A stretch of DNA of 64,000 nucleotides from an uncultured Gammaproteobacteria bacterium (lineage in GTDB: Bacteria; Pseudomonadota; Gammaproteobacteria; Pseudomonadales; Pseudohongiellaceae), in NCBI GenBank assembly GCA_913060695.1, contig CAJXUA010000002.1, forward strand, positions 62,001-126,000, read 5' to 3'. A program made the position numbers and the translations under genes. Each line of letters opens with the position of its first letter. Within the stretch, counting starts at the first letter, position 1. The notes under the pieces are model-generated. The model ran no database searches. It was not told where the DNA came from and saw only the letters and a list, made by a program, of their open reading frames with translations. Positions 10,720-43,429 of this stretch are shown here, one piece after another.

Positions 10720-11394
10720 CTAGATGCCTAGCTCCGCACGCAATTTTTTCATGCGCGCCTGATTTTCCTGAGCAGAAAGTGGCTTAGGAATATGCTGGCT
10801 CAGCGCAGGCGGCGGTGGACTTACAAGCTCCTCGCCACGCATCACTCGCTGACAAAGCGCGTGATAATAGTATTGGAAAAGCGGATACACCTTATCCTCT
10901 GGCTCCGAGGCCAAGAAGAACCAGCCAGTAGATTTACCGGCGAAATAGACCGCCTCGTGGCTCCACTTCGCAGCACTCTTAGGCGAGGGCGCACGGCAGG
11001 CCTCGACATAGGCTTCCCGCGGGGAAGGCAGGCCGAACACACTCGCGCCATCTTCGCAGGCACGCACCACCACCGAAACGGTCGGTAAAAAATCATGGGT
11101 TTTCACCACATGACGTGCGGCCGCGACTATCTGCGCCGGGGCATAATTAGCGAGACAACTCAGCCAATACTTCTTAGCCAGCACAAGACGCTCTTCGTTG
11201 CTGTAGGCCTTGTAATATTGGTTGTGATAGGCAATCTCGAACTCCGCAAACAATTGATTGATCGCGTCGACTCGGTCCGGGCCGCTGTCGCCCTTAGGCT
11301 CGTGCTTAGTCTGCCCAGCTTCTGTCTGTGAATCTCTGGAAGGACGCGCCAAGGTCTTGCTTGCCCTTTCCAGTAAAGGATTTATCTTCTGCAT
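10720..11394 (-). CDS. Phage lambda P-like replication protein (putative helicase loader)
   Basis: The 224-residue protein has a central helical region (about 40-115) with the pattern of the phage replication protein P family: an LFAEFEIAYHNQY segment, an AKKYW segment, then HDFLPTVSVVVRAC. P-type proteins bring the replicative helicase to DNA, as DnaC does in E. coli. No Walker A motif is seen, so it is not a DnaC ATPase. The start at ATG 11394 overlaps the end of the upstream DnaT-like gene by 89 bases; a GTG nine bases further upstream is also possible. The pairing with a DnaT-domain protein supports a primosome role. The family call is from pattern resemblance. Confidence 0.55.
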   Translation of the reverse strand: MQKINPLLERASKTLARPSRDSQTEAGQTKHEPKGDSGPDRVDAINQLFAEFEIAYHNQYYKAYSNEERLVLAKKYWLSCLANYAPAQIVAAARHVVKTHDFLPTVSVVVRACEDGASVFGLPSPREAYVEACRAPSPKSAAKWSHEAVYFAGKSTGWFFLASEPEDKVYPLFQYYYHALCQRVMRGEELVSPPPPALSQHIPKPLSAQENQARMKKLRAELGI

Positions 11395-12457
11395 GAATAA
11401 CACTCATGTTTCGCGACTCTTCTAGTCGCCTTGCCCATTGGTATTTGATGAACTGTAGGTAGCGCGTGTTCCACGAGGCGTGCACCTGATTAGTATCGCG
11501 CCAATAGAGCACAAACTCACTGACCTTCTGCCGCGCAAACTCTTCGTCGATCTCGGCCATGTTCAGTATATCGAAGCATTCTGGCGCTGGCTGCCAGTCC
11601 TCGGCTATACGGCGAGGCTGCGTGTCGTGTTGAATCGAGGCTGAATACTTGCCCCACTGGCGACGAATATGCTCGATGAATCGAGTGTTCCACGCCCCAT
11701 TACTCGCTCCGCGCTCACGCCAATATAGAACAAACTCAGGAATCGCGTCCTCGATGAATGTGCTGCTAATGCCGGCGTTCTCTAGGATGCTCAATGCGTC
11801 ATCACTAGGCCACCACTGCGCCGACATCTCCGTGTCTAGCTCGCTCAAACCTCGTCGCGTCTGTTCTGAGCGCCACTCCCTTAAGACGTGTTTGTAGAAC
11901 GCATTGCCCCATGAGAAGCGCGCCTGTTTGCGGTCTCGCCAGTACATCACGAAGCCAGACACCAACTGCTGCACGAACTCTTCGGGAATATTCTGCTGCT
12001 TGCACTGTTTAATCCAGTCTTGGCTCGGCTGCCAGTTGGCGGGAATAAAACTAGCACCTTGCGCGGGGGCGGCCATCTCTGCTGCCGCCTGCGGATTGAC
12101 CCGCGGCCCTGTACTATGCCTATCAGAAGCACGGGAATCTGGCTCCTGCTCGCGCGGTTGATTTACAGCGAAATAATTGGTCTGTGCGTCGCTCGTGCTG
12201 GGGTCTAGCAGAATCAAGCCGAGATCTAATAGACTCTTCTGCACTCGCTTGATATCGATGAAGGCCCAGAAAGGCAATGCATCGCATAGGTCTTGTTGAG
12301 AGAGCTCTACCCAGCGCAGCCGGTCCTTCTCACGAATTGGACGATGCGCCATCAACTCGGTCAATACGTGCAGTAGCACCGCTTCCTCCAGCCCGATTGT
12401 AGCGGCTAGCGTTGGCGAAATTATGAGTGGACGTTCCGGTACGAGCGAGGACTGCAT
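11306..12457 (-). CDS. DnaT-like protein with three tandem DnaT ssDNA-binding domains
   Basis: The N-terminal part (about 5-85) looks like a winged-helix segment (SPTLAATIGLEEAVLL, ELSQQDLCDALPFW). After a linker of about 50 residues come three homologous repeats of about 55-60 residues (near 140-196, 214-268 and 287-345). Each has W-x-P early, EFVLYWRD or a close variant in the middle, W-x-x-x-F/Y and a final R-x-W. This is the signature of the DnaT C-terminal domain, which binds single-stranded DNA and DnaC in E. coli primosome assembly. E. coli DnaT has one such domain. The ATG at 12457, with AGG seven bases upstream, is preferred over an upstream GTG. Confidence 0.75.
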   Translation of the reverse strand: MQSSLVPERPLIISPTLAATIGLEEAVLLHVLTELMAHRPIREKDRLRWVELSQQDLCDALPFWAFIDIKRVQKSLLDLGLILLDPSTSDAQTNYFAVNQPREQEPDSRASDRHSTGPRVNPQAAAEMAAPAQGASFIPANWQPSQDWIKQCKQQNIPEEFVQQLVSGFVMYWRDRKQARFSWGNAFYKHVLREWRSEQTRRGLSELDTEMSAQWWPSDDALSILENAGISSTFIEDAIPEFVLYWRERGASNGAWNTRFIEHIRRQWGKYSASIQHDTQPRRIAEDWQPAPECFDILNMAEIDEEFARQKVSEFVLYWRDTNQVHASWNTRYLQFIKYQWARRLEESRNMSVIHAEDKSFTGKGKQDLGASFQRFTDRSWAD

Positions 12458-12553
12458 GCTAAACCTAGGTGGCACGAGGGGCCAACGTGATTATCTTAAA
12501 TTCTGCGGCAATCCTAACACAGCCCCTCGGTGCAAACCCATGCGCATCTTTGT

Positions 12554-15554: not shown

Positions 15555-16577
15555 TTAGCGCGGCAGCATGCCATCCATGCGTGCCAGGCGTTCAATTAAA
15601 TTCTCTACGCGAGTGCTATAGCCCCACTCGTTGTCATACCACGCGATGACTTTAACCATACGTTTTTGCATGACCTGGGTCAGCTCTGCATCGAAAATGC
15701 TCGAGTGCGAGTTGCCAATGATATCACTTGAGACAATTGGATCTGTGCAGTAGGACAAAATACCCCGCAGAGGGCCGTCTGCCGCAGCCTTCATCGCCGC
15801 ATTGACCTGCGCAACCGTCACATCCATGTCTACCTCCACCGTGAGGTCTACGAGGCTCCCATCTGGCACTGGCACTCGCATCGCCACGCCATCCAAGAGC
15901 CCTTTTAGCTCGGGCAGAATGACTCCGATGGTGCGCGCCGCACCCGTGGAGGTCGGCACAATATTGGTAGCGGCATTGCGCGAGCGGCGCTTGTCGGCAT
16001 GGGGAGCATCGATTAAGCGTTGGTCAGAGGTATACGCATGCACGGTGGTCAATAGACCATAGCGAATGCCGAAGGCATCGTGGAGAACTTTCGCTAGTGG
16101 CGCTGCGCAGTTCGTGGTGCAGCTGGCATTGCTGATGATACGAGTTTCCTTGGTCACCACTTGATCGTTGACCCCCATCACCAGTGTTGCATCCAAGGGC
16201 TCTTTAGTGGGCACTGTGACAATTACTCGCTTTGCGCCTGCCTCCAGATGCTTATTCAAGTCCGCAATTTTGCGAAACGCGCCACTCGCCTCGACCACAT
16301 AGTCCACGCCTAGCTTTTTCCAGGGTAGTTTCGCTGGGTCGCGCTCACAGAGCACATCAAAAGGATCACCATCGATCTCCATGCGGTTACCAGACACCGA
16401 TACCTCACCTGGATAGACACCATGATTGCTGTCGAAACGGAAAGCATAGGCCAATTGATCAGCACTGGACAGATCATTTACGGCGACTACATTGTAGTGA
16501 CCACGCAGTTTCGCAATACGCATTACCGTGCGCCCTATTCGCCCAAAGCCATTGATCGCAATTCTTGGAATAGCCAT
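15555..16577 (-). CDS. gap: Glyceraldehyde-3-phosphate dehydrogenase, type I
   Basis: This enzyme oxidises glyceraldehyde 3-phosphate to 1,3-bisphosphoglycerate with NAD(P) in glycolysis. The protein has 340 residues, the Rossmann start INGFGRIGR, the catalytic SNASCTTNC with Cys153, the TVHAYTSDQ segment with the catalytic His, and the C-terminal WYDNEWGYS. The sequence after the first strand (NDLSSADQLAYAFRFDSNHG) fits Gap rather than erythrose-4-phosphate dehydrogenase. It is followed closely by the DUF748 gene. Confidence 0.97.
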   Translation of the reverse strand: MAIPRIAINGFGRIGRTVMRIAKLRGHYNVVAVNDLSSADQLAYAFRFDSNHGVYPGEVSVSGNRMEIDGDPFDVLCERDPAKLPWKKLGVDYVVEASGAFRKIADLNKHLEAGAKRVIVTVPTKEPLDATLVMGVNDQVVTKETRIISNASCTTNCAAPLAKVLHDAFGIRYGLLTTVHAYTSDQRLIDAPHADKRRSRNAATNIVPTSTGAARTIGVILPELKGLLDGVAMRVPVPDGSLVDLTVEVDMDVTVAQVNAAMKAAADGPLRGILSYCTDPIVSSDIIGNSHSSIFDAELTQVMQKRMVKVIAWYDNEWGYSTRVENLIERLARMDGMLPR

Positions 16578-16632
16578 TAATCCTCCTAGAAAACATTGAT
16601 GGATTGAACTCAGTCTACACTGCCCAGAAATA

Positions 16633-16669
16633 AAAAAGGCCCGATTGCGTCAAGCAATCGGGCCTTTTA
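16633..16669 (-). terminator. Rho-independent terminator of PQQ dehydrogenase 1
   Basis: A perfect GC-rich stem (AAGGCCCGATTGC pairing with GCAATCGGGCCTT, loop of five bases) is followed on the minus strand by a run of T. It lies just after the stop of the gene ending at 16688. Confidence 0.9.
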
Positions 16670-16687
16670 ATCTAGCAAGCTAGCAGC

Positions 16688-18754
16688 TTAGTGGCCGCCC
16701 GCTCCTGAGCTAACAGGACCATGCAAGTTCATTGCAGTCAGCGTGCTACCAGTTTGCAGAATGATGTACTGCTCGCCTTTGTGGACGTAGGTCATCATGC
16801 CGTAGCGGCTGTTTGCCGGTACTTGTACTTTGCCGATTTGACGACCAGTCGCCTTATCAACTGCGAACAAGTGTGGCGTGCCATCGCTAGCTTGCGATGC
16901 ATAGATCAGCATGTTCTTAGTCACTGTCATTGGAGCGTGTGCACCAGTACCAGTGTTGCCAATATCAATCCCTGCAAGTGCTGGGTTGTTCTTAATGCGA
17001 TCAGGCGTCTCACCGACAGGGATCATCCATAAATGATCGCCAGTGTTCAGGTCGATAGCAGTGATACGGCTGTAAGGTGGCTTGAACAGAGACAGACCAC
17101 TTGGACCACGTGGACCACCGCCGCCAGCGCCTACAGCGTACTGAGCAGTAGTAGTACCAGTAGTAGTAGTGCCACTGTCAGTCATATAACGTAGGTCAGC
17201 TTCTTCACCAGGAACGATCTGGCGAGTCGTACAGCCACTCAAAGAAGTCACATAAAGAATACCAGTCTCGGGATCACCTGCCGCTGGGCCGGAGATGTTG
17301 ACACCACCGACATCACCTGGACACCACAGCGCACCGCGCTTGCCCATGTCGTTATCTCTATGCAGAGGAGGCGTGAACATTGGACCGTATTCCCACTCAG
17401 AGAGAATCTCCAGCGCCTGAGCACGAAGCTCTGGAGTGAAGTCGATCATATTCTCGTCATTCAAGCCTTGGCGATCAAAAGGAGCTGGCTTGGTTGGGAA
17501 AGGCTGAGTAGCAGACAGCATCTCACCGGGAACGTGTGATTGTGGCACTGGACGCTCTTCGATAGGCCACAGTGGCTCACCAGTTTCGCGGTTAAATGCA
17601 TAAGTAAACGCTTGCTTGGTTACTTGCGCGATAGCGGGGATTTTCTGGCCGTCGTGCATAACGTCTAGCAATACTGGGGCCGTTGGCGTGTCGTAGTTCC
17701 AGATGTCATGGTGAACCATCTGGAAGTGCCACTTACGCTCACCTGTCTTAACGTCAAGCGCGATAAGGCTAGTGCCGAAGAGGTTGTCACCAGGACGGAA
17801 ACCACCGTAGAAGTCGATTGTTGCGCCATTAGTAGGAATGTACACAAGACCAAGTTCTGGGTCGGCAGACATAGGTGCCCATGAAGACACGTCACCTGTG
17901 TATTGCCATGCATCGTTTTCCCAAGTGTCATGACCGAACTCGCCTGGCTGTGGGATCACATTGAATTTCCATAGGAATTCGCCAGTCTTAGAGTCATAGG
18001 CAAGGATGTCGCCTGGCACGTTCTCGATACGAGATTGGTTGTAACCCTGCTCTGCAGAGTTGCCCACCACGATCACGTCATTAACCACGATGGGTGGCGA
18101 AGAAGTGGTGATATAGCCAGTTTCTTTAGGGATACCGTAGAAAGGATCGTAATCGTGACCTAGATCGGCCAGCATGTCGACCACACCTGTTTCAGGGAAA
18201 CCCTCAACTGGCACTTTCTTACCAAAGCCTTCCAGAGGCGCACCGGTCTTAGCGTCGAGTGCTACAAGGAAGAAGGCTGGCGTACTAATGTAAATAACGC
18301 CTTTGCCGTCTACTACATTGTAGGCAACGCCTTTACCGTAGTCAGCTCGCATTGAGTATTCGTAGCGGAAAGTGTTTGGCTCGCGGTAAGACCATACAGT
18401 CTCACCTGTCACTGGGTCGATCGCTACAACGTGACGACGAGGGCCAGCAACAGTGTACAGCAGACCATCGATGAAGCTAGGAGTTGCACGGCCGCTCTGA
18501 GCGTCGAAGCTCGCGCCATCCCAAACCCATGCTTCTTTCAATTCACCGAAGTTCGATTCAGTAATGTTTGTGGCAGGCGAATAGCGAGTGTGATCGAAGT
18601 CACCACCCAGATGTACCCACTCTACTTCTTCTTGGGCTTGCACAGAGGCAGTAGCCGTCAAGAGCAGACCTAGAGCCAAGGTCTTTGTTAGCGATCGCCA
18701 GCTATTCTTAGCTGGCTGTCGGGCTAAACCCGACTCAACACGCAACTTTGTCAT
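16688..18754 (-). CDS. Secreted PQQ-dependent dehydrogenase, tandem copy 1
   Basis: This 688-residue quinoprotein has a signal peptide (cut near SVQA|QEE) and an eight-blade PQQ propeller. Several blades carry the A-x-D-x-x-TG-x-x-x-W docking motif ([33 protein letters not shown]). The metal-site Glu is likely that in GNSAEQGY and the Asn that in PTNGATID. The usual catalytic Asp is Asn in HHDIWNYD, while TKQ supplies a Lys as in glucose dehydrogenases. There is no CxxCH haem site, vicinal disulfide or membrane domain. Electrons would go to an external acceptor; the substrate is unknown. The start at 18754 is chosen because GAGGAAA is correctly spaced there, as in the paralogues. It is the most divergent of the four tandem copies. 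Confidence 0.88.
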
Positions 18755-19177
18755 TATCATTTCCTCGTTGAGTAATAGTTGTAGCTATACAGCTTGCGAT
18801 TCAAAACCCAAATCCCCCGCGGGCGATTCGTTCGCAATGAAGACTTGCCGATCACGCAGACTCAGCAAACACTTTTTGGATAGTACCGAACATAAAAAAG
18901 AGGACGAAGAATACCCTAGCTGAATTATCAAGTCCATTAGGGGACATGCGCCCTACAGGTTGCTAAAGTCCACTTAACGAATGCAGACTCCTTCACACTT
19001 CCATACAAGCCAAGACCGGCAATCGGTCCAAGTTGATTCCTCGCGAAGCTAGGTTTTTCGGTCTACACGCAGAAATTTCACTAAATCACAGCTTGCTAAG
19101 GATTGTTACATTTCGAGCTTCGAGATTTGCCGCTCATATGGAGGGGGCGTTGCTCCAAACCATGTAGAACCACTGAC

Positions 19178-19302
19178 TGTAGGAGCTCATGCCCTCGTAA
19201 GGGGGTGCCCTGCAAGCGAATGGGTGCGATTGAAGAAAATCTGTGGAGGAGTTTGACCGATCGCCTGCAGGGCACCCCCTTACGAGGGCATGGGCTCCTA
19301 CA
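19178..19302. repeat. Inverted pair of long REP-like elements
   Basis: The arms at 19178-19219 and 19261-19302 are nearly perfect reverse complements of 42 bases. Each starts GTAGGAGC and ends GCAAGCGA or GCAGGCGA, with an inserted CCCTCGTAAGGGGGTGCC core that the short copies lack. The pair could fold into one large hairpin. Confidence 0.8.
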
Positions 19303-19374
19303 ATCAGAGTGGTTTTCGAGACCGAATGGAATCCACCCCATGCAGGCGCATTTTCTCAACCTGAACAACCCCAT

Positions 19375-19411
19375 AAAAAAAGGCCGAACCCGCGAGGGTT
19401 CGACCTTCTTT
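19375..19411 (-). terminator. Rho-independent terminator of PQQ dehydrogenase 2
   Basis: The stem AAGGCCGAACCC pairs with GGGTTCGACCTT across a GCGA-type loop with one mismatch, followed on the minus strand by a T run. It lies downstream of the gene ending at 19448. Confidence 0.85.
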
Positions 19412-19447
19412 AGCACTCGTCAACGTGAGAGCGCGGATGCGGCTAGA

Positions 19448-21523
19448 TCAATGTCCGCCTACTGCAGCCTTAGGACCATGCAAGTTCATTGCAGTCAGCG
19501 TGCTGCCAGTTTGCAGCACGATGTACTGCTCACCATGATGCACATAGCTCATCATGCCGTAGCGACTACCCGCAGAGACAGGGATCCGGGCTAACTCACG
19601 GCCCGTAGCCTTATCGATCGCGAACAGGTGTGGCGTGCCATCGCTAACATCGCCCGCATAGATCAACATGTTAGCTGTTACCAGCATCGGCGCTTGTGCA
19701 CCAGTGCCGGTATTGCCGATATCCACCCCAGCCAATGCCGGATTGTTCTTAATGCGATCTGGCGTTTCACCAATCGGGATCATCCACAGGTGCTCACCGG
19801 TGTTCAGGTCGATTGCAGTAATGCGGCTATATGGAGGCTTCATCAAAGGCAGACCACTTGGAGCGCGTGGCGCGCCGCCACCAGCACCATTGGCATAGCG
19901 TGCAGGGGTTCTTCCCGTCGTAGTCGTGCCATTGTCCGTCATATAGCGTAGGTCGGCCTCATCTCCTGGTACCAGGATATTGGCGCTACAGGCGCTTTGC
20001 GACGTGAGATAGATGATGCCAGTCTCGGGATCGCCCGCAGCCGGCCCAGTGATATTGGAACCACCGCCATCGCCTGGACACCAGTACGAACCACGCTTAC
20101 CGAGATCGTTGTCACGATGCAGCGGTGGGTTGTACAAGGGGCCAATCTGCCAATCGGCAAGAGTGGCTATCGCCTGCTGACGCAGCTCGGGAGTGAAGTC
20201 GATCATCGTATCGACACTCAGGCCTTGCAAATCGTAAGGCAGAGGCTTAGTAGGGAATGGCTGAGTAGCAGAGAGCTGCTCCCCTGGCACTACCGACTGA
20301 GGCACCGGGCGCTCTTCGATTGGCCACAACGGCTCACCCGTTTCGCGGTTAAATGCGAACAATAGAGTCTGCTTAGTGGGCTGTGCAACCGCCTTAATGA
20401 TGCGGCCATTTTGCTGCACATCGAGCAACACAGGCGCAGTTGGAATGTCGTAGTTCCACACATCGTGGTGTACTAGCTGGAAGTGCCACTTGCGCTCACC
20501 GGTTGCGACGTCTATCGCAATCAAGCTCGTACCGAAGAGGCCATCGCCTGGGCTGAAGCCACCGTAGTAGTCGATCGTCGGTGGGTTAGTCGCAATATAA
20601 ACTAGGCCCAATTCAGGGTCAGCGGACAATGGTGCCCATGGCGAGACATCGCCCGTATATTGCCATGCATCACTTTCCCAAGTGTCGTGACCGAACTCGC
20701 CTGGACGCGGAATCACGTTGAACTTCCACTTGAAGTCGCCCGTCTTAGCGTCATAGGCAAGAATATCGCCAGGAACGTTTTCAATACGAGACTGGTTATA
20801 ACCCTGCTCTGCAGAGTTACCGACCACTACTACACCATTGACCACGATGGGTGGCGAGGAGGAGGTCAGATAGCCAACTTCTTTGTCGATACCATAGTAG
20901 GGATCGTAGGGATGGCCGAGGTCTTCGAGCATATCTACAACACCGGTCTGTGCGAAGCCGTCAATTGGGACAGGCTTGCCGAAACCAGGAAGTGGCGCAC
21001 CGGTGTCCGCATCGAGTGCGGTCAGGAAGAAAGCTGGGCTAATTATGTAGATAACACCTTTGCCATCGACTTCGGCATAGGCAACGCCCTTACCGTAATC
21101 CTTACGCATGGAGTATTCCCAGCGGAAGGTGTTCGGCTCGCGGTACGACCACAGAGTCTCGCCCGTTTCTGGATCCATCGCGATCACGTGGCGACGTGGA
21201 CCGGCGACGGTATAGAGCTTGCCATTGACATAGCTAGGCGTTGAGCGGCCGCTTTGAGCATCGAAGCTCGCGCCGTTCCAAACCCAAGCCTCTTGGAGCT
21301 CGCCGAAATTTTCAGGGGTGATGTTAGTTGCGGGGGTGTAACGCGTGTGGTGAGCGTTGCCACCGAGATGGGTCCACTCAACAGTATCTTGCGCTAAGGC
21401 GGGAGTTGCTACACTAACTAATAAGCCTAGCGGCAGTGCTCTCGTCAAAGTCTTTCTTAGTGAACGCCAGCGATTGCTCACCGACTGTCGGGCAGAGCCC
21501 GACTCAACAGTCTTTTTTCTCAT
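19448..21523 (-). CDS. Secreted PQQ-dependent dehydrogenase, tandem copy 2
   Basis: A 691-residue paralogue of copy 1. The signal peptide ends VATPALA|QDT. PQQ W-motifs include AMDPETGETLW, AYDAKTGDFKW, AIDVATGERKW and AIDLNTGEHLW. Metal-site Glu (NSAEQGY) and Asn (ATNPPTID) are present; the catalytic Asp position is Asn (HHDVWNYD). The C-terminus is the family SLHGP/NLHGP...GGH. There is no haem or membrane domain. The ATG at 21523 has GAGGAAA upstream; an in-frame upstream start in the leader is rejected. It is very close to copy 3 in protein sequence, but synonymous codons differ widely, pointing to an old duplication kept by selection. Confidence 0.88.
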   Translation of the reverse strand: MRKKTVESGSARQSVSNRWRSLRKTLTRALPLGLLVSVATPALAQDTVEWTHLGGNAHHTRYTPATNITPENFGELQEAWVWNGASFDAQSGRSTPSYVNGKLYTVAGPRRHVIAMDPETGETLWSYREPNTFRWEYSMRKDYGKGVAYAEVDGKGVIYIISPAFFLTALDADTGAPLPGFGKPVPIDGFAQTGVVDMLEDLGHPYDPYYGIDKEVGYLTSSSPPIVVNGVVVVGNSAEQGYNQSRIENVPGDILAYDAKTGDFKWKFNVIPRPGEFGHDTWESDAWQYTGDVSPWAPLSADPELGLVYIATNPPTIDYYGGFSPGDGLFGTSLIAIDVATGERKWHFQLVHHDVWNYDIPTAPVLLDVQQNGRIIKAVAQPTKQTLLFAFNRETGEPLWPIEERPVPQSVVPGEQLSATQPFPTKPLPYDLQGLSVDTMIDFTPELRQQAIATLADWQIGPLYNPPLHRDNDLGKRGSYWCPGDGGGSNITGPAAGDPETGIIYLTSQSACSANILVPGDEADLRYMTDNGTTTTGRTPARYANGAGGGAPRAPSGLPLMKPPYSRITAIDLNTGEHLWMIPIGETPDRIKNNPALAGVDIGNTGTGAQAPMLVTANMLIYAGDVSDGTPHLFAIDKATGRELARIPVSAGSRYGMMSYVHHGEQYIVLQTGSTLTAMNLHGPKAAVGGH

Positions 21524-21573
21524 TGTTATTTCCTCGTTGAGCAGATGTATCACTCAGCTAGACGATTAGTATT

Positions 21574-21579
21574 ATTGTA
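21574..21579 (-). promoter_or_regulatory. Candidate -10 box of PQQ dehydrogenase 2
   Basis: On the minus strand the sequence ATACAATAA lies about 50 bases before the ATG. The same ATACAATAA and following AATCGT, then a CTCAACGAGG ribosome-binding block, recur before copy 3, so the promoter and leader seem conserved between the two copies. No strong -35 box is seen. Confidence 0.4.
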
Positions 21580-21736
21580 TCGCCGCCTGAGATCTGCCGT
21601 ACCTTGCACAGCTAGTCGTCAGGCCCCTTCAGCACCACAAAATCGAGTCTTGAACCTCGCTGAAATGAGGCGTCGAGCATAACGCAGGGTAAGCCCTAAG
21701 TCCACAGCCTCCGGCGTTTGCAAGCAAGTTCGAAGT

Positions 21737-21777
21737 AAAAAACCCGACCGTTTCGCAACGACCGGGTTTTCTTTTTT
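21737..21777 (-). terminator. Rho-independent terminator of PQQ dehydrogenase 3
   Basis: The stem AAAACCCG pairs with CGGGTTTT around an inner CGTT/AACG hairpin, flanked by A and T runs. It lies downstream of the gene ending at 21809. Confidence 0.85.
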
Positions 21778-21808
21778 AGCGCTTCTAAAGGAAACTGATA
21801 GGGGCCAT

Positions 21809-23887
21809 TTAGTGGCCGCCAGCACTATTAGCTACCGGGCCGTGCAAAGACATCGCTGTTAATGTGCTACCAGTTTGCAGAACAATGTACTGCTCGCCCT
21901 GGTGCACATAGCTCATCATGCCATAGCGAGTTTGTGCCGGCACTGGCAAACGCGCCAACTCTCGCCCTGTCGCTTTATCGATGGCGAACAAGTGCGGCGT
22001 GCCATCACTCACTTCACCGGCATACAGCAGCATCGAGGGCGTTACCATCATCAATGCCTGCGCGCCTGTGCCGGTATTACCGATATCCACCCCTGCCAAT
22101 GCAGGGTTATTCTTGATGCGATCAGGCGTCTCACCAATTGGGATCATCCACAGATGCTCTCCGCTGTTTAAATCGATAGCGGTAATGCGGCTATAAGGAG
22201 GTTTCATCAAAGGCAATCCACTAGGTGCGCGAGGCGCGCCCCCGCCAGCGCCATTGGCGTAACGTGCCGGAGTTATTCCAGTGGTTGTCGTGCCATTGTC
22301 TGTCATATAACGCAAGTCTGCCTCGTCGCCGGGCACAAGGGTGTGTGGCGCGCACGCACTCTGCGAGCTTACGTAGATGATGCCAGTCTCTGGATCTGCA
22401 GCAGCAGGGCCGGTGATGTTTGAACCGCCCGCATCGCTTGGACACCAGTAAACACCGCGCTTACCTAAAGCGTTGTCTCGATGCAGAGGTGGGTTATACA
22501 TAGGGCCAATCTGCCAATCGGCAAGAGCGGCGATCGCCTGCTGCCGCAACTCTGGCGTGAAGTCGATCATTGTATCGACACTCAGGCCTTGCATATCGTA
22601 TGGCAATGGTTTGCTAGGGAATGGTTGAGTCGCAGAAAGTTGCTCGCCCGGCACAACGGACTGTGGCACAGGACGCTCTTCGATTGGCCACAAAGGTTCA
22701 CCCGTTTCGCGATTGAAAACGAACAACAGAGTTTGCTTAGTAGGCTGTGCCACTGCCTTGATAGTGCGACCATTTTGTTGCACGTCGAGCAACACTGGCG
22801 CAGTCGGAATGTCGTAGTTCCACACATCATGATGCACCAGTTGAAAGTGCCATTTACGCTCGCCAGTCGCGACATCTAATGCAATCAAGCTCGTGCCGAA
22901 AAGATTATCGCCAGGGCTGAAACCGCCGTAGTAGTCGATCGTCGGCGGATTGGTCGCGACATAGACTAGACCCAATTCCGGATCCGCCGATAGTGGCGCC
23001 CATGGGGAAACATCACCCGTATACTGCCATGCATCACTCTCCCAGGTATCGTGACCGAACTCACCAGGGCGCGGAATTACATTAAACTTCCACTTGAAGT
23101 CGCCGGTTTTGGCGTCATAAGCAAGAATATCGCCCGGCACGTTCTCTATTCGAGATTGGTTATAACCCTGCTCGGCAGAGTTACCCACTACCACGACGCC
23201 GTTGACGACTATGGGAGGAGACGAGGATGTCAGATAGCCAATTTCTTTATCGATGCCATAGTAAGGGTCAAAAGGATGCCCCAAGTCTGCGAGCAAATCG
23301 ACCACACCAGTCTGCGCGAACCCGTCGATAGGCACTGGCTTACCAAAACCTTGCAGGGGTGCGCCAGTATCTGCGTCGAGTGCCGTGAGGAAGAATGCTG
23401 GACTAATAATGTAAATCACACCTTTGCCATCGACTTCGGCATAGGCAACGCCCTTACCGTAGTCCTTGCGCATAGAGTATTCCCAGCGGAAGGTATTCGG
23501 CTCGCGGTATGACCATAGCGTCTCGCCCGTCTCCGGGTCCATTGCAATAACATGGCGACGCGGTCCAGCAACGGTATACAGCTTGCCATTGACGTAGCTA
23601 GGGGTGGAACGGCCGCTCTGCGCATCGAAGCTAGAACCATTCCAAACCCAAGCTTCTTTAAGCTCGCCGAAATTATTGGGATTGATGTTGTTGGCCGGTG
23701 TATAGCGGGTGTGGTGAGCATCGCCACCGAGATGAGTCCACTCAATAGTGTCTTGAGCGAGGGCAGGAGCCGCCGTACCGACCAGCAGCCCTAGAGGCAG
23801 CGCTCTCGTTAAAATATTTCCAATCACACGCCAGCGACTATTCGCTGACTTTCGGGGCGTTCCTGATTCAACAATATTTCTTTCCAT
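21809..23887 (-). CDS. Secreted PQQ-dependent dehydrogenase, tandem copy 3
   Basis: A 692-residue paralogue, closest to copy 2. The signal peptide ends GTAAPALA|QDT. PQQ W-motifs, Glu in NSAEQGY, Asn in ATNPPTID, HHDVWNYD with Asn at the catalytic Asp position, and TKQTLLF are all kept. Two Cys in the late part (YWCPSD, SQSACAP) are at the same places as in copies 1, 2 and 4. It starts MERNIVESG at 23887 with GAGGTAAA upstream. It is predicted to be periplasmic, and its substrate is unknown. Confidence 0.88.
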   Translation of the reverse strand: MERNIVESGTPRKSANSRWRVIGNILTRALPLGLLVGTAAPALAQDTIEWTHLGGDAHHTRYTPANNINPNNFGELKEAWVWNGSSFDAQSGRSTPSYVNGKLYTVAGPRRHVIAMDPETGETLWSYREPNTFRWEYSMRKDYGKGVAYAEVDGKGVIYIISPAFFLTALDADTGAPLQGFGKPVPIDGFAQTGVVDLLADLGHPFDPYYGIDKEIGYLTSSSPPIVVNGVVVVGNSAEQGYNQSRIENVPGDILAYDAKTGDFKWKFNVIPRPGEFGHDTWESDAWQYTGDVSPWAPLSADPELGLVYVATNPPTIDYYGGFSPGDNLFGTSLIALDVATGERKWHFQLVHHDVWNYDIPTAPVLLDVQQNGRTIKAVAQPTKQTLLFVFNRETGEPLWPIEERPVPQSVVPGEQLSATQPFPSKPLPYDMQGLSVDTMIDFTPELRQQAIAALADWQIGPMYNPPLHRDNALGKRGVYWCPSDAGGSNITGPAAADPETGIIYVSSQSACAPHTLVPGDEADLRYMTDNGTTTTGITPARYANGAGGGAPRAPSGLPLMKPPYSRITAIDLNSGEHLWMIPIGETPDRIKNNPALAGVDIGNTGTGAQALMMVTPSMLLYAGEVSDGTPHLFAIDKATGRELARLPVPAQTRYGMMSYVHQGEQYIVLQTGSTLTAMSLHGPVANSAGGH

Positions 23888-23939
23888 TATTGTTTACCTC
23901 GTTGAGCGGATCGATTACTCAGTAAAAACGATTAAATTT

Positions 23940-23945
23940 ATTGTA
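23940..23945 (-). promoter_or_regulatory. Candidate -10 box of PQQ dehydrogenase 3
   Basis: On the minus strand ATACAATAA occurs 53 bases before the ATG, followed by TTTAATCGT and the CTCAACGAGG ribosome-binding block, closely matching the leader of copy 2. A TTTGGT sequence 16 bases upstream is only a weak -35 candidate. Confidence 0.4.
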
Positions 23946-24014
23946 TTGACTCCTTACATTTACCAAAGCAAGCATAACTCTACAATCATCGGCGCCTATA
24001 CGCATGCCCGAAAC

Positions 24015-24053
24015 AAAAAAACCCGGCAGCTTCACAACAACCGGGTTTTTTCG
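24015..24053 (-). terminator. Rho-independent terminator of PQQ dehydrogenase 4
   Basis: The stem AAAAAACCCGG pairs with CCGGGTTTTTT around a 17-base loop, flanked by A and T runs, just downstream of the gene ending at 24087. Confidence 0.85.
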
Positions 24054-24086
24054 TGTGCATGCCCACAAGGCATCATTTGGACCTAC

Positions 24087-26165
24087 TTAGTGCCCGCCAG
24101 CCCCACTGGCAACAGGACCGTGCAAAGACATAGCTGTTAACTTACTGCCAGTTTGCAGAATGATGTACTGTTCGCCAGCATGAACATAGCTCATCATGCC
24201 ATAGCGACTAGTCGCCGGAACGGTGACTTTGCCTAACTGCTGACCAGTGGATTTGTCCACCGCAAACAGTGTAGGCGTGCCATCGCTCGTCTCAGAGGCA
24301 TAGACCAGCATCGAAGGCGTCACCATCATCGGTGCCATAGCGCCTGTACCGGTGTTGCCGATGTCTATCCCCGCTAGCGCAGGATTGTTCTTGATGCGAT
24401 CAGGAGTCTCACCCACTGGGATCATCCACAGGTGCTCGCCAGTGTTCAGATCGATAGCGGTAATGCGGCTATACGGAGGCTTCCACAATGGCAGGCCTGT
24501 TGGATGACGCGGTGCTCCAGCGCCAGGACCATTGGCATACTGCGCAGGCGTAACACCAGTAGTAGTGGTGCCATTGTCCGTCATATAGCGCAGATCCGCC
24601 TCTTCGCCTGGCAGCAGCTGAACCGCACTGCAGGCCGACTGCGACGTAACGAACAGGATGCCGGTTTCGGGATCACCCGCAGCTGGGCCTGTAATATTGG
24701 AACCGCCGCCGCCACCTGGACACCAGTAAGCGCCACGCTTACCGAGATCGTTATCACGATGCAGAGGCGGGTTATACAAAGGCCCTATCTGCCAATCCGC
24801 TAGTGCCGCAATCGCTTGCTGGCGCAGCTCTGGAGTGAAGTCGATCAAGTCGTTTACCGTCAGGCCGTTCAGGTCATAGGCCACTGGCTTAGTAGGGAAT
24901 GGCTGCGTAGGCGATGCATGCTCGCCAGGCACGTGAGATACGGGCACTGGACGCTCTTCGATCGGCCACAATGGCTCGCCAGTCTCACGATTGAACGCGA
25001 ACAGCAATGTCTGCTTTGTCGCCTGGGCCACCGCAGGTATCTTCTGCCCATTGTGCATCACATCTAGGAGCACGGGCGCCGTAGGCACATCGTAGTTCCA
25101 TATATCATGGTGCACTAACTGGAAGTGCCAACGACGCTCTCCAGTTTCGACGTCTAGCGCAATGAGGCTAGTGCCGAACAGATTGTCGCCAGGGCTGAAA
25201 CCACCGTAATAGTCAACTGTAGGAGGATTCGTGGGGATATAAACTAGCCCCAACTCTGGGTCAGCCGAGAGCGGCGCCCAGGGAGAGACATCTCCTGTGA
25301 ACTGCCATGCATCGTTCTCCCAGGTGTCGTGACCGAACTCACCCGGGCGAGGAATCACGTTAAATTTCCACTTAAATGCGCCAGTCTTAGCGTCATAGGC
25401 GAGGATATCGCCAGGAATATTTTCCATACGGGATTGGTTGTAGCCCTGCTCCGCAGAGTTACCGACTACCACCACTCCGTTGACCACGATGGGTGGCGAG
25501 GAGGACGTGACATAACCAACTTCCTTGGGAATGCCGAAATAGGGATCAAAATCGTGCCCAAGATCGCCCAGCAGATCGACCACACCAGTCTGCGGGAAGC
25601 CATCGATTGGCACGGGCTTTCCGAAGCCCTCAAGCGGCGCGCCGGTGTCGGCGTCTAGCGCTGTAAGGAAGAAGGCAGGGCTGATGATGTAGATCACGCC
25701 TTTACCGTCGACTTGCGCGTAAGCAACACCCTTACCGTAGTCCTTGCGCATGGAGTATTCCCAGCGAAAGGTATTGGGCTCGCGATAAGACCATAGCGTC
25801 TCACCGCTCACGGGATCCATAGCGATGACATGACGGCGTGGACCGGCCACTGTAAACAGCTTACCTTCGACGTAGCTAGGCGTAGAACGACCACTCTGCG
25901 CATCGAAACTAGCACCATCCCACACCCAAGCCTCTTTCAGCTCGCCGATGTTGCTAGGGGTAATATTATCTGCGGGGGTGTAGCGCGTGTGCTCAGGATT
26001 GCCACCAAGATGGGTCCATTCGACTTCATCTTGGGCAAAGGCTGTGCTTGCTACAGACACCAGAAGCCCTAAGGGCAACGCCTTGGTCAATACTCGACTA
26101 ATTGAACGCCAACGACTGTGCGTCGACGACCGGGAAAATCCCGACACTTCATGCTCTTCTCTCAT
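24087..26165 (-). CDS. Secreted PQQ-dependent dehydrogenase, tandem copy 4
   Basis: A 692-residue paralogue and the first gene of the tandem array in transcription order. The signal peptide ends VASTAFA|QDE. W-motifs include AMDPVSGETLW, AYDAKTGAFKW, ALDVETGERRW and AIDLNTGEHLW. Glu (NSAEQGY) and Asn (PTNPPTVD) of the metal site are present, with HHDIWNYD again carrying Asn at the catalytic Asp position. The ATG at 26165, preceded by GAGAGGAAA, is chosen over an upstream start. There is no cytochrome or membrane domain. Confidence 0.88.
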   Translation of the reverse strand: MREEHEVSGFSRSSTHSRWRSISRVLTKALPLGLLVSVASTAFAQDEVEWTHLGGNPEHTRYTPADNITPSNIGELKEAWVWDGASFDAQSGRSTPSYVEGKLFTVAGPRRHVIAMDPVSGETLWSYREPNTFRWEYSMRKDYGKGVAYAQVDGKGVIYIISPAFFLTALDADTGAPLEGFGKPVPIDGFPQTGVVDLLGDLGHDFDPYFGIPKEVGYVTSSSPPIVVNGVVVVGNSAEQGYNQSRMENIPGDILAYDAKTGAFKWKFNVIPRPGEFGHDTWENDAWQFTGDVSPWAPLSADPELGLVYIPTNPPTVDYYGGFSPGDNLFGTSLIALDVETGERRWHFQLVHHDIWNYDVPTAPVLLDVMHNGQKIPAVAQATKQTLLFAFNRETGEPLWPIEERPVPVSHVPGEHASPTQPFPTKPVAYDLNGLTVNDLIDFTPELRQQAIAALADWQIGPLYNPPLHRDNDLGKRGAYWCPGGGGGSNITGPAAGDPETGILFVTSQSACSAVQLLPGEEADLRYMTDNGTTTTGVTPAQYANGPGAGAPRHPTGLPLWKPPYSRITAIDLNTGEHLWMIPVGETPDRIKNNPALAGIDIGNTGTGAMAPMMVTPSMLVYASETSDGTPTLFAVDKSTGQQLGKVTVPATSRYGMMSYVHAGEQYIILQTGSKLTAMSLHGPVASGAGGH

Positions 26166-26472: not shown

Positions 26473-27318
26473 TTACTCAGCTTCGGTAAGGGTCTCGATC
26501 AGGAAAGAAGCGTTATCGCCTAGTAGTGGCACGACCTCTTCGAACACGTCCTGCATGAGGGCTGAAAACTGCCAAGGAGTGTTGATAAGAAGCATACCGG
26601 ATCCGTGCATCCCATATTCCTGAGCCTGCTCGGCGACGCGCAGCTCGATACTCATCACCGAGCTCAATTTCTCGCGTTGCAGCGCTGCCTTGAGCCAAGG
26701 GCTGCGGTCTCGATCGGAAGCGAGGATGGGATACCAGATAGCCATAATGCCGACGGGCCAACGGCGCATGACCTTCTTCGCCACATTGACCACACGCTGG
26801 TAGTCCTCTTTCTGCTCGAAGGAGGGATCGATTAATGCCAAACCACGCCGCGGCTCTGGTGGCGTCAAGGCGAGCAGGCCCTCAAAGGCGTCGCGTTGAT
26901 GGATACTCACTCGCTCGTCGCGCCCTAGATAATATTGCAGCACCCCGAGCTCTTCGGGCTGCAAATCGAGCAGCTGCAGTCGGTCTTGAGTTCGGGCCGA
27001 CCACAGCGCAAAGGCAGGGGAACCGGGATAGAAGCGAAGTTCGCCGTCTTCGTTAAATGACCTTACACAGGCCAGATAATCCTGCAGCAGCGCGTTCTTG
27101 AAGTCGTGTTTCCACAGACGGCTAATGCCACTTTCGTATTCTGCATTCATCAAGGCATTGCTGCTAAGCAGGTCGTACATGCCTGCGCCACTGTGGGAGT
27201 CGATATAGCTAAACGCTTTGTCCTTGGCGCACAGCTTTTTAAGCACACCTAATAAGACGATATGTTTCAACACATCGGCGTGATTCCCAGCGTGAAAACT
27301 GTGACGATAGCTCAGCAT
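26473..27318 (-). CDS. rlmJ: 23S rRNA (adenine-2030 N6)-methyltransferase RlmJ
   Basis: RlmJ methylates A2030 of 23S rRNA using S-adenosylmethionine. The 281-residue protein starts with the family signature MLSYRHSFHAGNHADVLKH. It has YIDSHSGAGMYDL (SAM-binding region) and the catalytic motif as IDPSFEQKEDY, where E. coli has DPPY. Length and C-terminal motifs are typical. It follows the symporter gene by about 55 bases on the same strand. Confidence 0.95.
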   Translation of the reverse strand: MLSYRHSFHAGNHADVLKHIVLLGVLKKLCAKDKAFSYIDSHSGAGMYDLLSSNALMNAEYESGISRLWKHDFKNALLQDYLACVRSFNEDGELRFYPGSPAFALWSARTQDRLQLLDLQPEELGVLQYYLGRDERVSIHQRDAFEGLLALTPPEPRRGLALIDPSFEQKEDYQRVVNVAKKVMRRWPVGIMAIWYPILASDRDRSPWLKAALQREKLSSVMSIELRVAEQAQEYGMHGSGMLLINTPWQFSALMQDVFEEVVPLLGDNASFLIETLTEAE

Positions 27319-40859: not shown

Positions 40860-42794
40860 ATGATCACAAGAAAAAGATTGATGTCTTCACTCATTGCAAG
40901 CGTTGGCGTCATGATCTGTGCCCCGGCTGCACTAAGCCAGTCTGGCACTGATGTATATGCAGGCGATTGGCCTGATTATAACGGCAATATGGCGGCTCAA
41001 CGCTATTCCCCGCTCGATCAGATTAATGCTGAAAACGTAGGCACTATTCGTCAAGCTTGGAGCTTCTCAACAGAGAAGTTCGGGCCTTCACCAGAATTCA
41101 ATAACACGTCTACCCCACTAGAAGTAGACGGCGTTCTCTACGCCACTATGGGCGCAACGCGTAACGTAGCAGCACTAGATGCTACTACGGGTCAATTACT
41201 ATGGATGTGGCGCCCCGAAGAAGGCTCACGTTACGATGACGCGCCTCGCAAAGGTGCAGGCCGCGGCGTTGCATTCTATCGCGATGGCGACAATACCCGC
41301 ATCATGACCATCACTCCGGGCTTCTTCCTTGTGGCACTCGATGCCAAAACAGGCATCCCTGACCCAAGCTTTGGCGACAATGGTCGCGTCGACCTCTTCG
41401 ACGGTCTACGTAATGCATATGCCGATGGTTACGAAGATGTCGATATCGGCTCATCAATGCCTCCCTTCGTTATGAACGATGTAGTAGTTGTCGGCCCTGC
41501 TCACAAAGTAGGCATGCGTCCTCGCTCCATGACAAATGTTAAGGGCGATGTTCGAGCCTTTGATGCGCGCACAGGCGAAGTACTATGGACTTTCAAGACG
41601 ATCCCAGAGCGCGGCGAATACGGCTCTGAGACTTGGTTAGATGACGGAATCGAATTTACCGGCAACGCTGGTGTTTGGGCTCCTATGTCAGGCGACCCAG
41701 AGCTGGGTCATGTATATCTACCAGTGGAATCTGCTACTGGCGACCGCTTTGGTGGCGACCGTCCAGGCGACAACCTATTTGCGAATAGCCTAGTTGCTGT
41801 GGACATCAAGACTGGTGAGCGTCAATGGCATCACCAACTGATTCACCACGACATCTGGGACTGGGATAACCCCTCAGCGCCTGTTCTAGCTGACCTGCCC
41901 AATGGCCGTAAGGTTGTTATGCAAGTGACAAAACAGAACTTTGTCTACACATACGACCGCGCAACTGGCGAGCCAGTTTGGCCAATTGACGAACTACCAG
42001 TACCTGCCGGTGATGTGCCTGGCGAATGGTACTCACCTACTCAGCCTTTCCCAAGCAAGCCACCGGCATTCGATCGCCAAGGCTTCACCGAGGCTGACTT
42101 GATCGATTTCACTCCAGAGTTGCGTGCCGCAGCCCTAGAGGCCATCAAACCTTTCCGTTTGAGCACTAACCTTTACACACCTCCTTCACTCGCCGAAGGC
42201 TCGCCCGATGGCACCGTTGGTGTATTGAGCCTGCCCTCTGCTACTGGTGGCGCAAACTGGGAAGGAAGTGCACTCGATCCAGAAACTGGACTGCTCTACG
42301 TACCATCCAGAACTGCGTTAGCTGTACTTTCTGTAGGCAAAGATGACGATTCAGATTTGGCCTTCAGCGCAGCATTCGGCGTACGCGTACCGCGTGTAAG
42401 CGGCCTCGAAATTGTAAAACCCCCATATGGTCGAGTGACTGCGATCGATATGAATGTTGGTGAACAAGTTTGGCAAACCGCTAACGCGGACACGCCAGAC
42501 TCGATCACCAATAACCCTGCACTGCAAGGCGTGGATATTCCTCGCACAGGCGTAGCCACGCGCGCAGGCCTACTGCTAACCAAGACTCTCCTATTCGTAG
42601 GCGAAGGCGTTGGTGGTGGCAACAAGCTTTACGCTCAAGATAAAGCGACTGGTGAAATCGTTGCCCGCATCGAGCTGCCTAATACGCAGACTGGGCAGCC
42701 ATTTACATACGAGCACGAAGGTAAGCAATACATCGCCATGTTTGTTAGTGGCGGCGGCAGACCAACTGAATTGGTCGCCTTCACATTACCTTAA
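40860..42794 (+). CDS. Secreted PQQ-dependent dehydrogenase 5 (YceI-linked)
   Basis: The 644-residue quinoprotein has a signal peptide (cleavage near AALS|QSG) and a PQQ propeller with W-motifs ALDATTGQLLW, AFDARTGEVLW, AVDIKTGERQW and YDRATGEPVW. It opens with a bacterial quinoprotein-like pattern (GDWPDYNGNMAAQRYSPLDQ). The catalytic Asp is present in HHDIWDWD, followed by TKQN. The Glu and Asn of the alcohol-dehydrogenase metal site are not obvious (PAHKVG and PVESATGD at those places), so it is closer to glucose-dehydrogenase-like enzymes. No Cys occurs in the mature part and there is no haem site. GGGAGA precedes the ATG. It forms an operon with two YceI genes. Confidence 0.88.
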   Translation: MITRKRLMSSLIASVGVMICAPAALSQSGTDVYAGDWPDYNGNMAAQRYSPLDQINAENVGTIRQAWSFSTEKFGPSPEFNNTSTPLEVDGVLYATMGATRNVAALDATTGQLLWMWRPEEGSRYDDAPRKGAGRGVAFYRDGDNTRIMTITPGFFLVALDAKTGIPDPSFGDNGRVDLFDGLRNAYADGYEDVDIGSSMPPFVMNDVVVVGPAHKVGMRPRSMTNVKGDVRAFDARTGEVLWTFKTIPERGEYGSETWLDDGIEFTGNAGVWAPMSGDPELGHVYLPVESATGDRFGGDRPGDNLFANSLVAVDIKTGERQWHHQLIHHDIWDWDNPSAPVLADLPNGRKVVMQVTKQNFVYTYDRATGEPVWPIDELPVPAGDVPGEWYSPTQPFPSKPPAFDRQGFTEADLIDFTPELRAAALEAIKPFRLSTNLYTPPSLAEGSPDGTVGVLSLPSATGGANWEGSALDPETGLLYVPSRTALAVLSVGKDDDSDLAFSAAFGVRVPRVSGLEIVKPPYGRVTAIDMNVGEQVWQTANADTPDSITNNPALQGVDIPRTGVATRAGLLLTKTLLFVGEGVGGGNKLYAQDKATGEIVARIELPNTQTGQPFTYEHEGKQYIAMFVSGGGRPTELVAFTLP

Positions 42795-42820
42795 TCTGAA
42801 AACTAGGAGTAAGTATTACT

Positions 42821-43396
42821 ATGCGAACTTTAGTAAAACGCGCGGTGTTTGCACCGCTTTTGTTGGTCGTTGGCGCACAGGCGCAAGCTGCAAATTGGGA
42901 AATCGACTCGGCTGAATCCCGCGTTGTTTTCAAATATTCCTATGAAGGCACTCCATACGAAGGCGAGTTCAAGAACGTTGCAGCCACCTTCGATATCGAT
43001 CCGATGAATCCGGCATCATGTGACTTCTCGGTCACTATCCCAATCGCTGACATCAGCGTAGGCGATGCAGAGACTCTGGATTATTTGATGGATTTGGAAA
43101 TGTTCGACGTAGACCAATTCCCAACGGCGACTTTCCACGCAGAGAAGTGCAGCATGTCTTCGATGAATCAGTTCTCATCGGAAGGAATGCTAACGATCCG
43201 CGATCAGACTCATCCAATGACATTCCCATTCACAATGGAAATGGAAATGTATGATGGTCAGCCGCGCTTTCATTTGACTAGCGAAGTGACTGTTCAGCGC
43301 CTAGATTACGGCGTAGGTCAGGGCTACTGGGCAAACACAGCAACGATTCCGAATGAAGTAGTCGTTGTAATCGACGTTTACGCCAATCAGAAGTAA
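42821..43396 (+). CDS. YceI-family periplasmic protein 1
   Basis: The 191-residue protein has a signal peptide (cleavage near AQA|ANW) and a YceI lipocalin-like barrel: WEIDSAESRVVFKYSYEG, FDIDPMNPASCDFSVTIPIADI, FDVDQFPTATFHAEKC, EGMLTIRDQTHPMTFPF and LDYGVGQGYWANTATIPNEVVVVID. YceI proteins bind long isoprenoid chains, including quinones, in the periplasm. AGGAG lies just upstream of the ATG; the gene starts 27 bases after the PQQ dehydrogenase stop. Confidence 0.9.
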   Translation: MRTLVKRAVFAPLLLVVGAQAQAANWEIDSAESRVVFKYSYEGTPYEGEFKNVAATFDIDPMNPASCDFSVTIPIADISVGDAETLDYLMDLEMFDVDQFPTATFHAEKCSMSSMNQFSSEGMLTIRDQTHPMTFPFTMEMEMYDGQPRFHLTSEVTVQRLDYGVGQGYWANTATIPNEVVVVIDVYANQK

Positions 43397-43429
43397 TAAC
43401 GTAAGCACCACCGTAAATAGGGTATTTCA

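What the first reader, a model, noticed from the sequence alone, without database searches (positions are those of the whole stretch)
16688..26165. Tandem array of four paralogous secreted PQQ dehydrogenases
Four full-length genes of 688-692 residues lie head to tail. Each has its own signal peptide, a CTCAACGAGG-type or related ribosome-binding block and its own intrinsic terminator. Copies 2 and 3 are nearly identical in protein but differ at many synonymous sites, so they are old and selected copies. No PQQ biosynthesis gene, cytochrome or transporter lies within the array. Such an expansion suggests different substrates or conditions for each copy.
Basis: partly seen in the sequence, partly recalled or inferred. 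Interest (0 to 1): 0.65.

Follow-up and report, generated by a model that had tools for sequence, protein, structure and literature searches.

The report
Quinoprotein array lacking catalytic aspartate
A bacterium keeps four side-by-side genes for exported enzymes of a sugar- and alcohol-oxidising type, and all four carry an asparagine where the key catalytic aspartate is expected while still being strongly preserved, which raises the question of what reaction they carry out.

Summary
The array is real: four minus-strand genes (688, 691, 692, 692 aa), each with its own leader and terminator hairpin. Copies are 75-90% identical with near-saturated synonymous sites; dN/dS against the nearest sister genome is 0.016-0.036. 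Sister genomes of the genus have it too.

The first Asp of the DYD-type motif (E. coli Gcd D466) is Asn in all four copies. Seven of seven other GDH-type paralogues in this genome keep Asp. Among 235 unique relatives, 172 are Asn and 63 Asp, with one change on the tree; the Asn class is one clade inside the GDH type. Other pocket residues are kept.

Asn-class genes elsewhere precede a small cytochrome c in 17 of 80 loci; this genome has an unlinked homologue. pqqC and pqqE were not found, but a PqqU-like receptor was.

Best reading: redox-active periplasmic quinoproteins without the usual Asp, using scavenged PQQ. A new variant of a known kind; cofactor, activity and substrates are untested.

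The parts
24087..26165 (-). copy D (first in transcription order), 692 aa exported Asn-class quinoprotein
   Evidence: PF01011 full length; NYD motif; counterparts in sister genomes
21809..23887 (-). copy C, 692 aa, Asn class; 90.3% identical to B
19448..21523 (-). copy B, 691 aa, Asn class (the ORF list opens it earlier, at 21553)
16688..18754 (-). copy A (last), 688 aa (690 from an upstream ATG), Asn class
25095..25097 (-). codon AAC, Asn357 of copy D, at the catalytic-Asp position
22817..22819 (-). codon AAC, Asn357 of copy C
20453..20455 (-). codon AAC, Asn357 of copy B
17696..17698 (-). codon AAC, Asn353 of copy A
24015..24086 (-). 3' region of copy D holding a terminator-like hairpin and T-run
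   Evidence: fold z -3.7; not in the consensus scan
21735..21808 (-). 3' region of copy C holding a terminator-like hairpin and T-run
   Evidence: fold z -2.75; not in the consensus scan
19370..19447 (-). 3' region of copy B holding a terminator-like hairpin and T-run
   Evidence: fold z -4.1; scan lists the stem on the other strand only
16620..16687 (-). 3' region of copy A holding a terminator hairpin and T-run
   Evidence: fold z -5.4; also in the consensus scan
26473..27318 (-). flanking rlmJ-like gene (name recalled from the sequence), same strand, upstream of the array; same neighbour in 7 sister loci
15555..16577 (-). flanking glyceraldehyde-3-phosphate dehydrogenase-like gene (name recalled from the sequence), downstream; same neighbour in 4 sister loci
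40860..42794 (+). fifth quinoprotein gene of the window, 644 aa, Asp class (WDWD), outside the array

Best explanation
The array encodes four periplasmic eight-bladed quinoproteins of the glucose-dehydrogenase type, belonging to a clade in which the catalytic-position Asp became Asn once. Shown by sequence: the array, the Asn in every member examined, a single clade, strong purifying selection, conserved pocket Lys/Trp/Thr, a small cytochrome c directly downstream in some relatives, an unlinked homologue of that cytochrome in this genome, and no pqqC or pqqE hit. Inferred: the proteins are exported, bind PQQ imported through a PqqU-like receptor, oxidise a substrate with another residue (the second Asp of NYD, or the class-specific Glu239) in place of the Asp, and pass electrons to the unlinked cytochrome c; lineages A, B/C and D have distinct roles.
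For: Asn at the catalytic column in 4 of 4 array copies against Asp in 7 of 7 other GDH-type own paralogues and in 6 of 6 proteins examined from 5 of the 557 plasmid records that matched. Of 235 unique proteins 172 Asn and 63 Asp, one change on a tree built without the motif columns; Asn class a clade inside the GDH type, SH-aLRT 100. dN/dS 0.036, 0.031 and 0.016 for A, B and D against G012. Lys493 and Trp404 (E. coli numbering) in 172 of 172, Thr424 in 170 of 172 of the Asn class. Cytochrome c directly downstream, same strand, in 17 of the 80 best named Asn-class loci; it is homologous to the cytochrome c beside an Asp-class gene on a Sphingobium plasmid (two-sequence E 7e-24 and 1e-16), and the same model hits the reading frames of two own Asp-class genes, L014 and L017, which have CxxCH near the N-terminus (49 and 55 bits). 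Own stand-alone homologue at G000:C4:199845-200207, 121 bits. Best PDB matches of the model are PQQ alcohol dehydrogenases, Z 29. PqqU-like receptor, 34% identity, E 1.6e-101.
Against: The Asp is regarded as essential (recalled mutant work on E. coli GDH and methanol dehydrogenase), so Asn could mean no dehydrogenase activity. The model is weak (pLDDT under 50) at residues 238-251, 279-284, 290-294 and 316-329, the first of which includes the class-specific Glu239. No cytochrome gene lies in the array, and in 63 of 80 named loci none of that family was found next door (many loci end at contig edges, and frames under 100 aa were not listed). One of the three published PqqU signature residues (R304) aligns with Lys, with an Arg one position before. 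Co-occurrence with the cytochrome is confounded by genus, the model was built mostly from Asn-linked cytochromes, and genomes without Asn-class genes have lower-scoring stand-alone hits (for example 85.5 bits in G029).
Confidence: 0.55

Rival explanations
1. Pseudoenzymes: the clade lost dehydrogenase activity with the Asp and now acts as a periplasmic PQQ-binding, storage, scaffold or sensing protein.
For: Asn throughout the clade; long stem branch, 0.54 and 0.74 changes per column in two trees; many other class-specific changes; pqqC and pqqE not found in this genome.
Against: Pocket Lys, Trp and Thr kept; cytochrome c directly downstream in 17 of 80 loci; several copies under strong constraint are hard to explain for a store.
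Confidence: 0.2
2. A non-redox enzyme on the quinoprotein fold, such as a hydrolase or lyase, as in tetrathionate hydrolase, which shares the fold.
For: Tetrathionate hydrolase is among the fold matches (7cqy, Z 22.9); some relatives sit next to lyase-type genes: a DHDPS-family gene directly upstream in 14 of 80 loci, a PatB-like lyase gene in 9 of 80 (one member of each scanned; the PatB-like one scored 312.9 bits, under its cut-off of 340).
Against: Closer to PQQ alcohol dehydrogenases (Z 29 against 23; full-length PF01011); recurrent cytochrome c neighbour.
Confidence: 0.1
3. Ordinary PQQ dehydrogenases in which Asn is a tolerable replacement for Asp, the array being a dosage or substrate-range expansion.
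For: Other hallmarks of the family are present; paralogue expansion is normal in this genome, with 19 PF01011 genes.
Against: A single change on the tree of 235 proteins shows that the residue does not drift freely; the copies are old, not recent dosage copies.
Confidence: 0.15

Closest known systems
Glucose/quinate/shikimate-type quinoprotein dehydrogenases (PF01011; E. coli Gcd as yardstick)
   Same: Full-length Pfam match, eight-bladed fold, Lys493, Trp404 and Thr424 equivalents kept
   Different: Asn at Asp466; no N-terminal membrane domain (alignment); far under the TIGR03074 cut-off (286-319 against 832.65 bits); class-specific Glu239, Asn313 and Cys512, copy C numbering
Lanthanide-dependent alcohol dehydrogenases XoxF/PedH with the DYD motif
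   Same: Second Asp of the motif kept (NYD); same fold
   Different: First Asp is Asn; TIGR03075 168-197 bits against a cut-off of 480.05; no adjacent Cys pair in the four sequences
Asp-class quinoprotein plus cytochrome c on Sphingobium indicum B90A plasmid pSRL1
   Same: Quinoprotein gene followed by a homologous small cytochrome c, as in 17 of 80 Asn-class loci
   Different: Keeps WD at the catalytic position; the window's array itself has no cytochrome
PQQ scavenging through PqqU (PMC12124388, abstract, passages and sections 9-10 seen)
   Same: No pqqC/pqqE hit, many quinoproteins and a PqqU-like receptor
   Different: Signature residue R304 not clearly met; the receptor itself is untested

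Membership tests
PQQ-dependent dehydrogenase, GDH type (PF01011) | Full-length PF01011 match above the curated cut-off | tested here: met
   545-577 bits, 1-595 of 595, cut-off 26.7
PQQ-dependent dehydrogenase, GDH type (PF01011) | Eight-bladed quinoprotein fold | tested here: met
   Model of copy C, pTM 0.83; top matches PQQ alcohol dehydrogenases, Z 28-29
PQQ-dependent dehydrogenase, GDH type (PF01011) | Catalytic/metal-site Asp (Gcd D466, recalled; XoxF 6DAM Asp327) | tested here: not met
   Asn in 4 of 4 copies
PQQ-dependent dehydrogenase, GDH type (PF01011) | Other pocket residues K493, W404, T424 (roles recalled) | tested here: met
   K384, W296, T316 in copy C; in the class K and W 172 of 172, T 170 of 172
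PQQ-dependent dehydrogenase, GDH type (PF01011) | Metal ligands at Gcd 354/355 (roles recalled) | tested here: inconclusive
   Gln/Gly in 159 of 172, but Asp-class members also vary and the loop alignment is uncertain
PQQ-dependent dehydrogenase, GDH type (PF01011) | PQQ-dependent substrate oxidation | not testable with these tools
   needs protein
TIGR03074 membrane-bound glucose/quinate/shikimate dehydrogenase | Score above curated cut-off | tested here: not met
   286-319 against 832.65 bits
TIGR03075 methanol/ethanol dehydrogenase | Score above curated cut-off | tested here: not met
   168-197 against 480.05 bits
REE-dependent alcohol dehydrogenase | DYD motif | tested here: not met
   NYD in all four copies; motif definition from passages of PMC11845868
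TIGR04528 acido-empty-quinoprotein group A | Score above curated cut-off | tested here: not met
   177-201 against 650 bits
PqqU (receptor at G000:C45) | Y/F/W99, R304, R365 signature (PMC12124388 section 10) | tested here: inconclusive
   F99 and R365 met; position 304 aligns with K, R one before

The most novel reading that the evidence does not exclude
A clade of quinoproteins that gave up the otherwise invariant Asp once and rebuilt the pocket (Glu at Gcd 353, Asn at 421, Asn at 466, a new Cys at 612) to run a different chemistry or use a modified cofactor, still wired to a small cytochrome c of its own, and kept as a multi-copy array in one genus.
Probability: 0.35. Interest if true: 0.75.

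Novelty: new variant of a known kind. Interest (0 to 1): 0.5.

Why it matters
The Asp is treated as a hallmark of eight-bladed PQQ enzymes. A large, selected, partly cytochrome-linked clade without it is a natural test of what the residue does, and suggests that many genes annotated as PQQ dehydrogenases in Pseudohongiella-type and Woeseia-type MAGs may run another reaction. Just over half of the genomes that hold such genes in the relatives set lack pqqC and pqqE hits (20 of 37), so it also bears on PQQ cross-feeding.

Tried and rejected
Recent duplication or gene conversion: rejected, third-position identity is low along all pairs in nearly every 60-codon block. One copy in G010 is split; the partial matches of G002, G006, G009 and G011 on the contigs fetched run to contig ends.

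So the 172 are near relatives by construction. I added Asp-class relatives and plasmid homologues before the count. Proteins under 480 aligned residues and identical aligned sequences were dropped there (355 ids to 235); some of the 235 may be truncated duplicates from overlapping loci, or the same genome seen under a G handle and a contig name. Asn proteins outside this clade are not excluded.

A draw of 143 class genomes gave a match at E <= 1e-80 only in the own genome and in one other, at 9.8e-81 with a stop inside; that cut hides distant Asp-class members.

Equating Glu239 and Asn313 with the XoxF Glu/Asn ligands: left open, a hand alignment puts each one residue off. Substrate: no evidence found. 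Sigma-70-like promoters: 7 found, 9.9 expected. The fold matches do not exclude folds not listed.

Literature: ten searches. In the listings (titles and starts of abstracts; searches matched 322 and 176 papers and listed 20 and 10) I saw none that describes this Asn class. Only CC-licensed PMC text is covered. Papers opened: PMC12124388 (abstract, passages, sections 9-10), PMC11845868, PMC5487730 and PMC6881810 (passages), PMC8741260 (one passage, in its reference list).

Not done: no signal-peptide predictor; model coordinates were not at hand to measure pocket distances; pqqA, pqqB and pqqD were not searched; G002, G006, G009 and G011 were left out of the genus tree.
Full report
OBSERVATION. 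The window holds four intact genes on the minus strand, D 24087-26165, C 21809-23887, B 19448-21523 and A 16688-18754 in transcription order, between an rlmJ-like gene and a gapA-like gene (the two flanking names are recalled from the sequences). All four match PF01011 over its whole length. Leaders share CTCAACGAGG (CTCAGAGAGG in D), and each 3' region folds into a hairpin followed by T (z -5.4 to -2.75), although a consensus scan lists only A's on this strand. Protein identities are 90.3% for B-C and 75-83% for the other pairs; NG86 dS is 1.5-2.9 (YN00 gives 1.05 for B-C), so synonymous sites are near or at saturation.

AGE AND SELECTION. All 13 other genomes of the genus searched have matches at 1e-180. 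Arrays of nine of them were put in a tree of 36 rows (33 array proteins, 3 outgroup rows; two pieces of one split G010 copy were too short and left out). win_A falls with seven other genomes at 100/99, and in all eight that copy is last in transcription order. win_D falls with G012, G003 and G001 at 100/99, and win_B/win_C with the same three genomes at 100/99; deeper forks among the remaining copies are open or weak (for example 81/89), so orthology of B/C and D beyond these four genomes is not settled. The nearest sister, G012, has A, B and D counterparts (97% identical) but no C; C branches outside the B pair (96/95), which suggests loss in G012. dN/dS of A, B and D against G012 is 0.036, 0.031 and 0.016. 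Among the 80 named loci the rlmJ-like gene lies upstream in 7 and the gapA-like gene downstream in 4, so the place is shared within the genus; many loci are cut by contig ends. Of the four sister genomes left out of the tree, the partial copies on the contigs that I fetched run to contig ends.

THE MISSING ASPARTATE. Alignment with E. coli Gcd and XoxF 6DAM puts Asn where Gcd has D466 and XoxF has the first Asp of WDYD. The 6DAM ligands are listed as Glu197, Asn285, Asp327 and Asp329, with DYD the signature (PMC11845868, passages); that Gcd D466 is the catalytic residue is recalled. All four array copies read HHD[IV]WNYD with codon AAC. The other GDH-type genes of this genome keep Asp in 7 of 7, and so do 7 of the 8 genes of the other type, the eighth (L028) being hard to align. 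Six proteins from five plasmid records keep Asp. A first count gave 172 Asn and 9 Asp among 181. After adding Asp-class relatives, 235 unique proteins gave 172 Asn and 63 Asp, with one change on a tree built without the motif columns. A smaller maximum-likelihood tree with own methanol-type proteins as outgroup puts the 24 Asn rows as one clade inside the GDH type. So within this sample Asp was lost once.

THE REST OF THE POCKET. In the Asn class the equivalents of Lys493 and Trp404 are invariant and Thr424 is kept in 170 of 172. Other columns changed together: Glu at Gcd 353 (Glu239, 164 of 172), Asn at 421 (Asn313, 172 of 172; Glu in 51 of 63 of the Asp class), Cys at 612 (Cys512, 172 of 172) and others. 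The model (pLDDT 77.9, pTM 0.83) matches PQQ alcohol dehydrogenases best (22vi, Z 29.2, rmsd 2.6, 473 aligned), but several loops near the predicted pocket are of low confidence.

PARTNERS. In 17 of the 80 best named Asn-class loci a small CxxCH cytochrome lies directly downstream on the same strand (one scanned with Pfam; eight aligned). A homologue follows an Asp-class gene on Sphingobium plasmid pSRL1, and the same model hits the reading frames of the own Asp-class genes of L014 and L017, which have a CxxCH near the N-terminus. This genome has a stand-alone member on another contig (C4:199845-200207, 121 bits). Among the 36 genomes of the family searched, those with Asn-class matches have a stand-alone hit of at least 118 bits in 22 of 24 (misses G002 and G019, 86% and 90% complete), those without in 0 of 12 (Fisher 7e-8). 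Cautions: the cut was chosen after seeing the gap, the model was built mostly from Asn-linked cytochromes, genera are not independent, and genomes without Asn-class genes have lower-scoring stand-alone hits. In other loci a DHDPS-family gene lies upstream (14 of 80) or a PatB-like lyase gene with a Tat-like N-terminus (by eye) nearby (9 of 80). No cytochrome lies in the window's array.

COFACTOR SUPPLY. pqqC and pqqE hits occur in the same 24 of 95 genomes (pqqC in G019 only as a weak fragment); both are missing here and in 8 of 13 sister-genus genomes. Of 37 genomes with an array-profile match at 1e-180, 20 lack both. pqqA, pqqB and pqqD were not searched. The genome has 19 PF01011 genes (11 matched over the full length, 8 in part) and a TonB receptor 34% identical to PqqU, with F99, R365 and R536 but Lys at R304 and Glu at K274. 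Import of PQQ by non-producers is established in general (PMC12124388, abstract and sections 9-10).

MECHANISM. Likely: exported protein, PQQ taken from the medium, substrate oxidation in a rebuilt pocket, electrons to the unlinked cytochrome c. Every step here is inferred from sequence. The main rival is a pseudoenzyme.

RELATION TO KNOWN FAMILIES. It works like a GDH-type quinoprotein by fold, pocket and partner, but a defining residue was tested and is absent, and scores are far below the TIGR03074, TIGR03075 and TIGR04528 cut-offs; I therefore call it a variant clade, not a member in the functional sense.

ORIGIN. Named relatives carry titles such as Pseudohongiella, Woeseia and unnamed Gammaproteobacteria or Pseudomonadales MAGs; that the window's genome belongs near Pseudohongiella is inferred from those titles.

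Noticed in passing
window 40860-44077 (+): A fifth, Asp-class quinoprotein gene is followed by two YceI-family genes; each of the 13 sister-genus genomes searched has a close homologue of it (best hits 75-95% identical).
   Followed up: partly
window 10720-12475 (-): Overlapping frames with a phage lambda P-like domain and DnaT domains (three stretches) lie side by side, a primosome-like pair.
   Followed up: no
L099, L106, L125, L128 and similar, downstream of the cytochrome c: A PatB-like lyase gene with a Tat-like N-terminus (by eye) follows the quinoprotein-cytochrome pair in several loci, some titled Woeseia, perhaps hinting at sulfur compounds.
   Followed up: partly
G048, G054, G020, G043: These family genomes give 67-84 first-look candidates for the array profile although no pqqC or pqqE hit was found in them, which may be a very large quinoprotein expansion.
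   Followed up: no
L085: A record titled Klebsiella pneumoniae MAG holds array-type genes, best segment 86% identical to copy C, so its label is probably wrong.
   Followed up: no
L157 (G010:C38:44605-46613): One array copy is split into two overlapping frames, a frameshift or an assembly error.
   Followed up: partly
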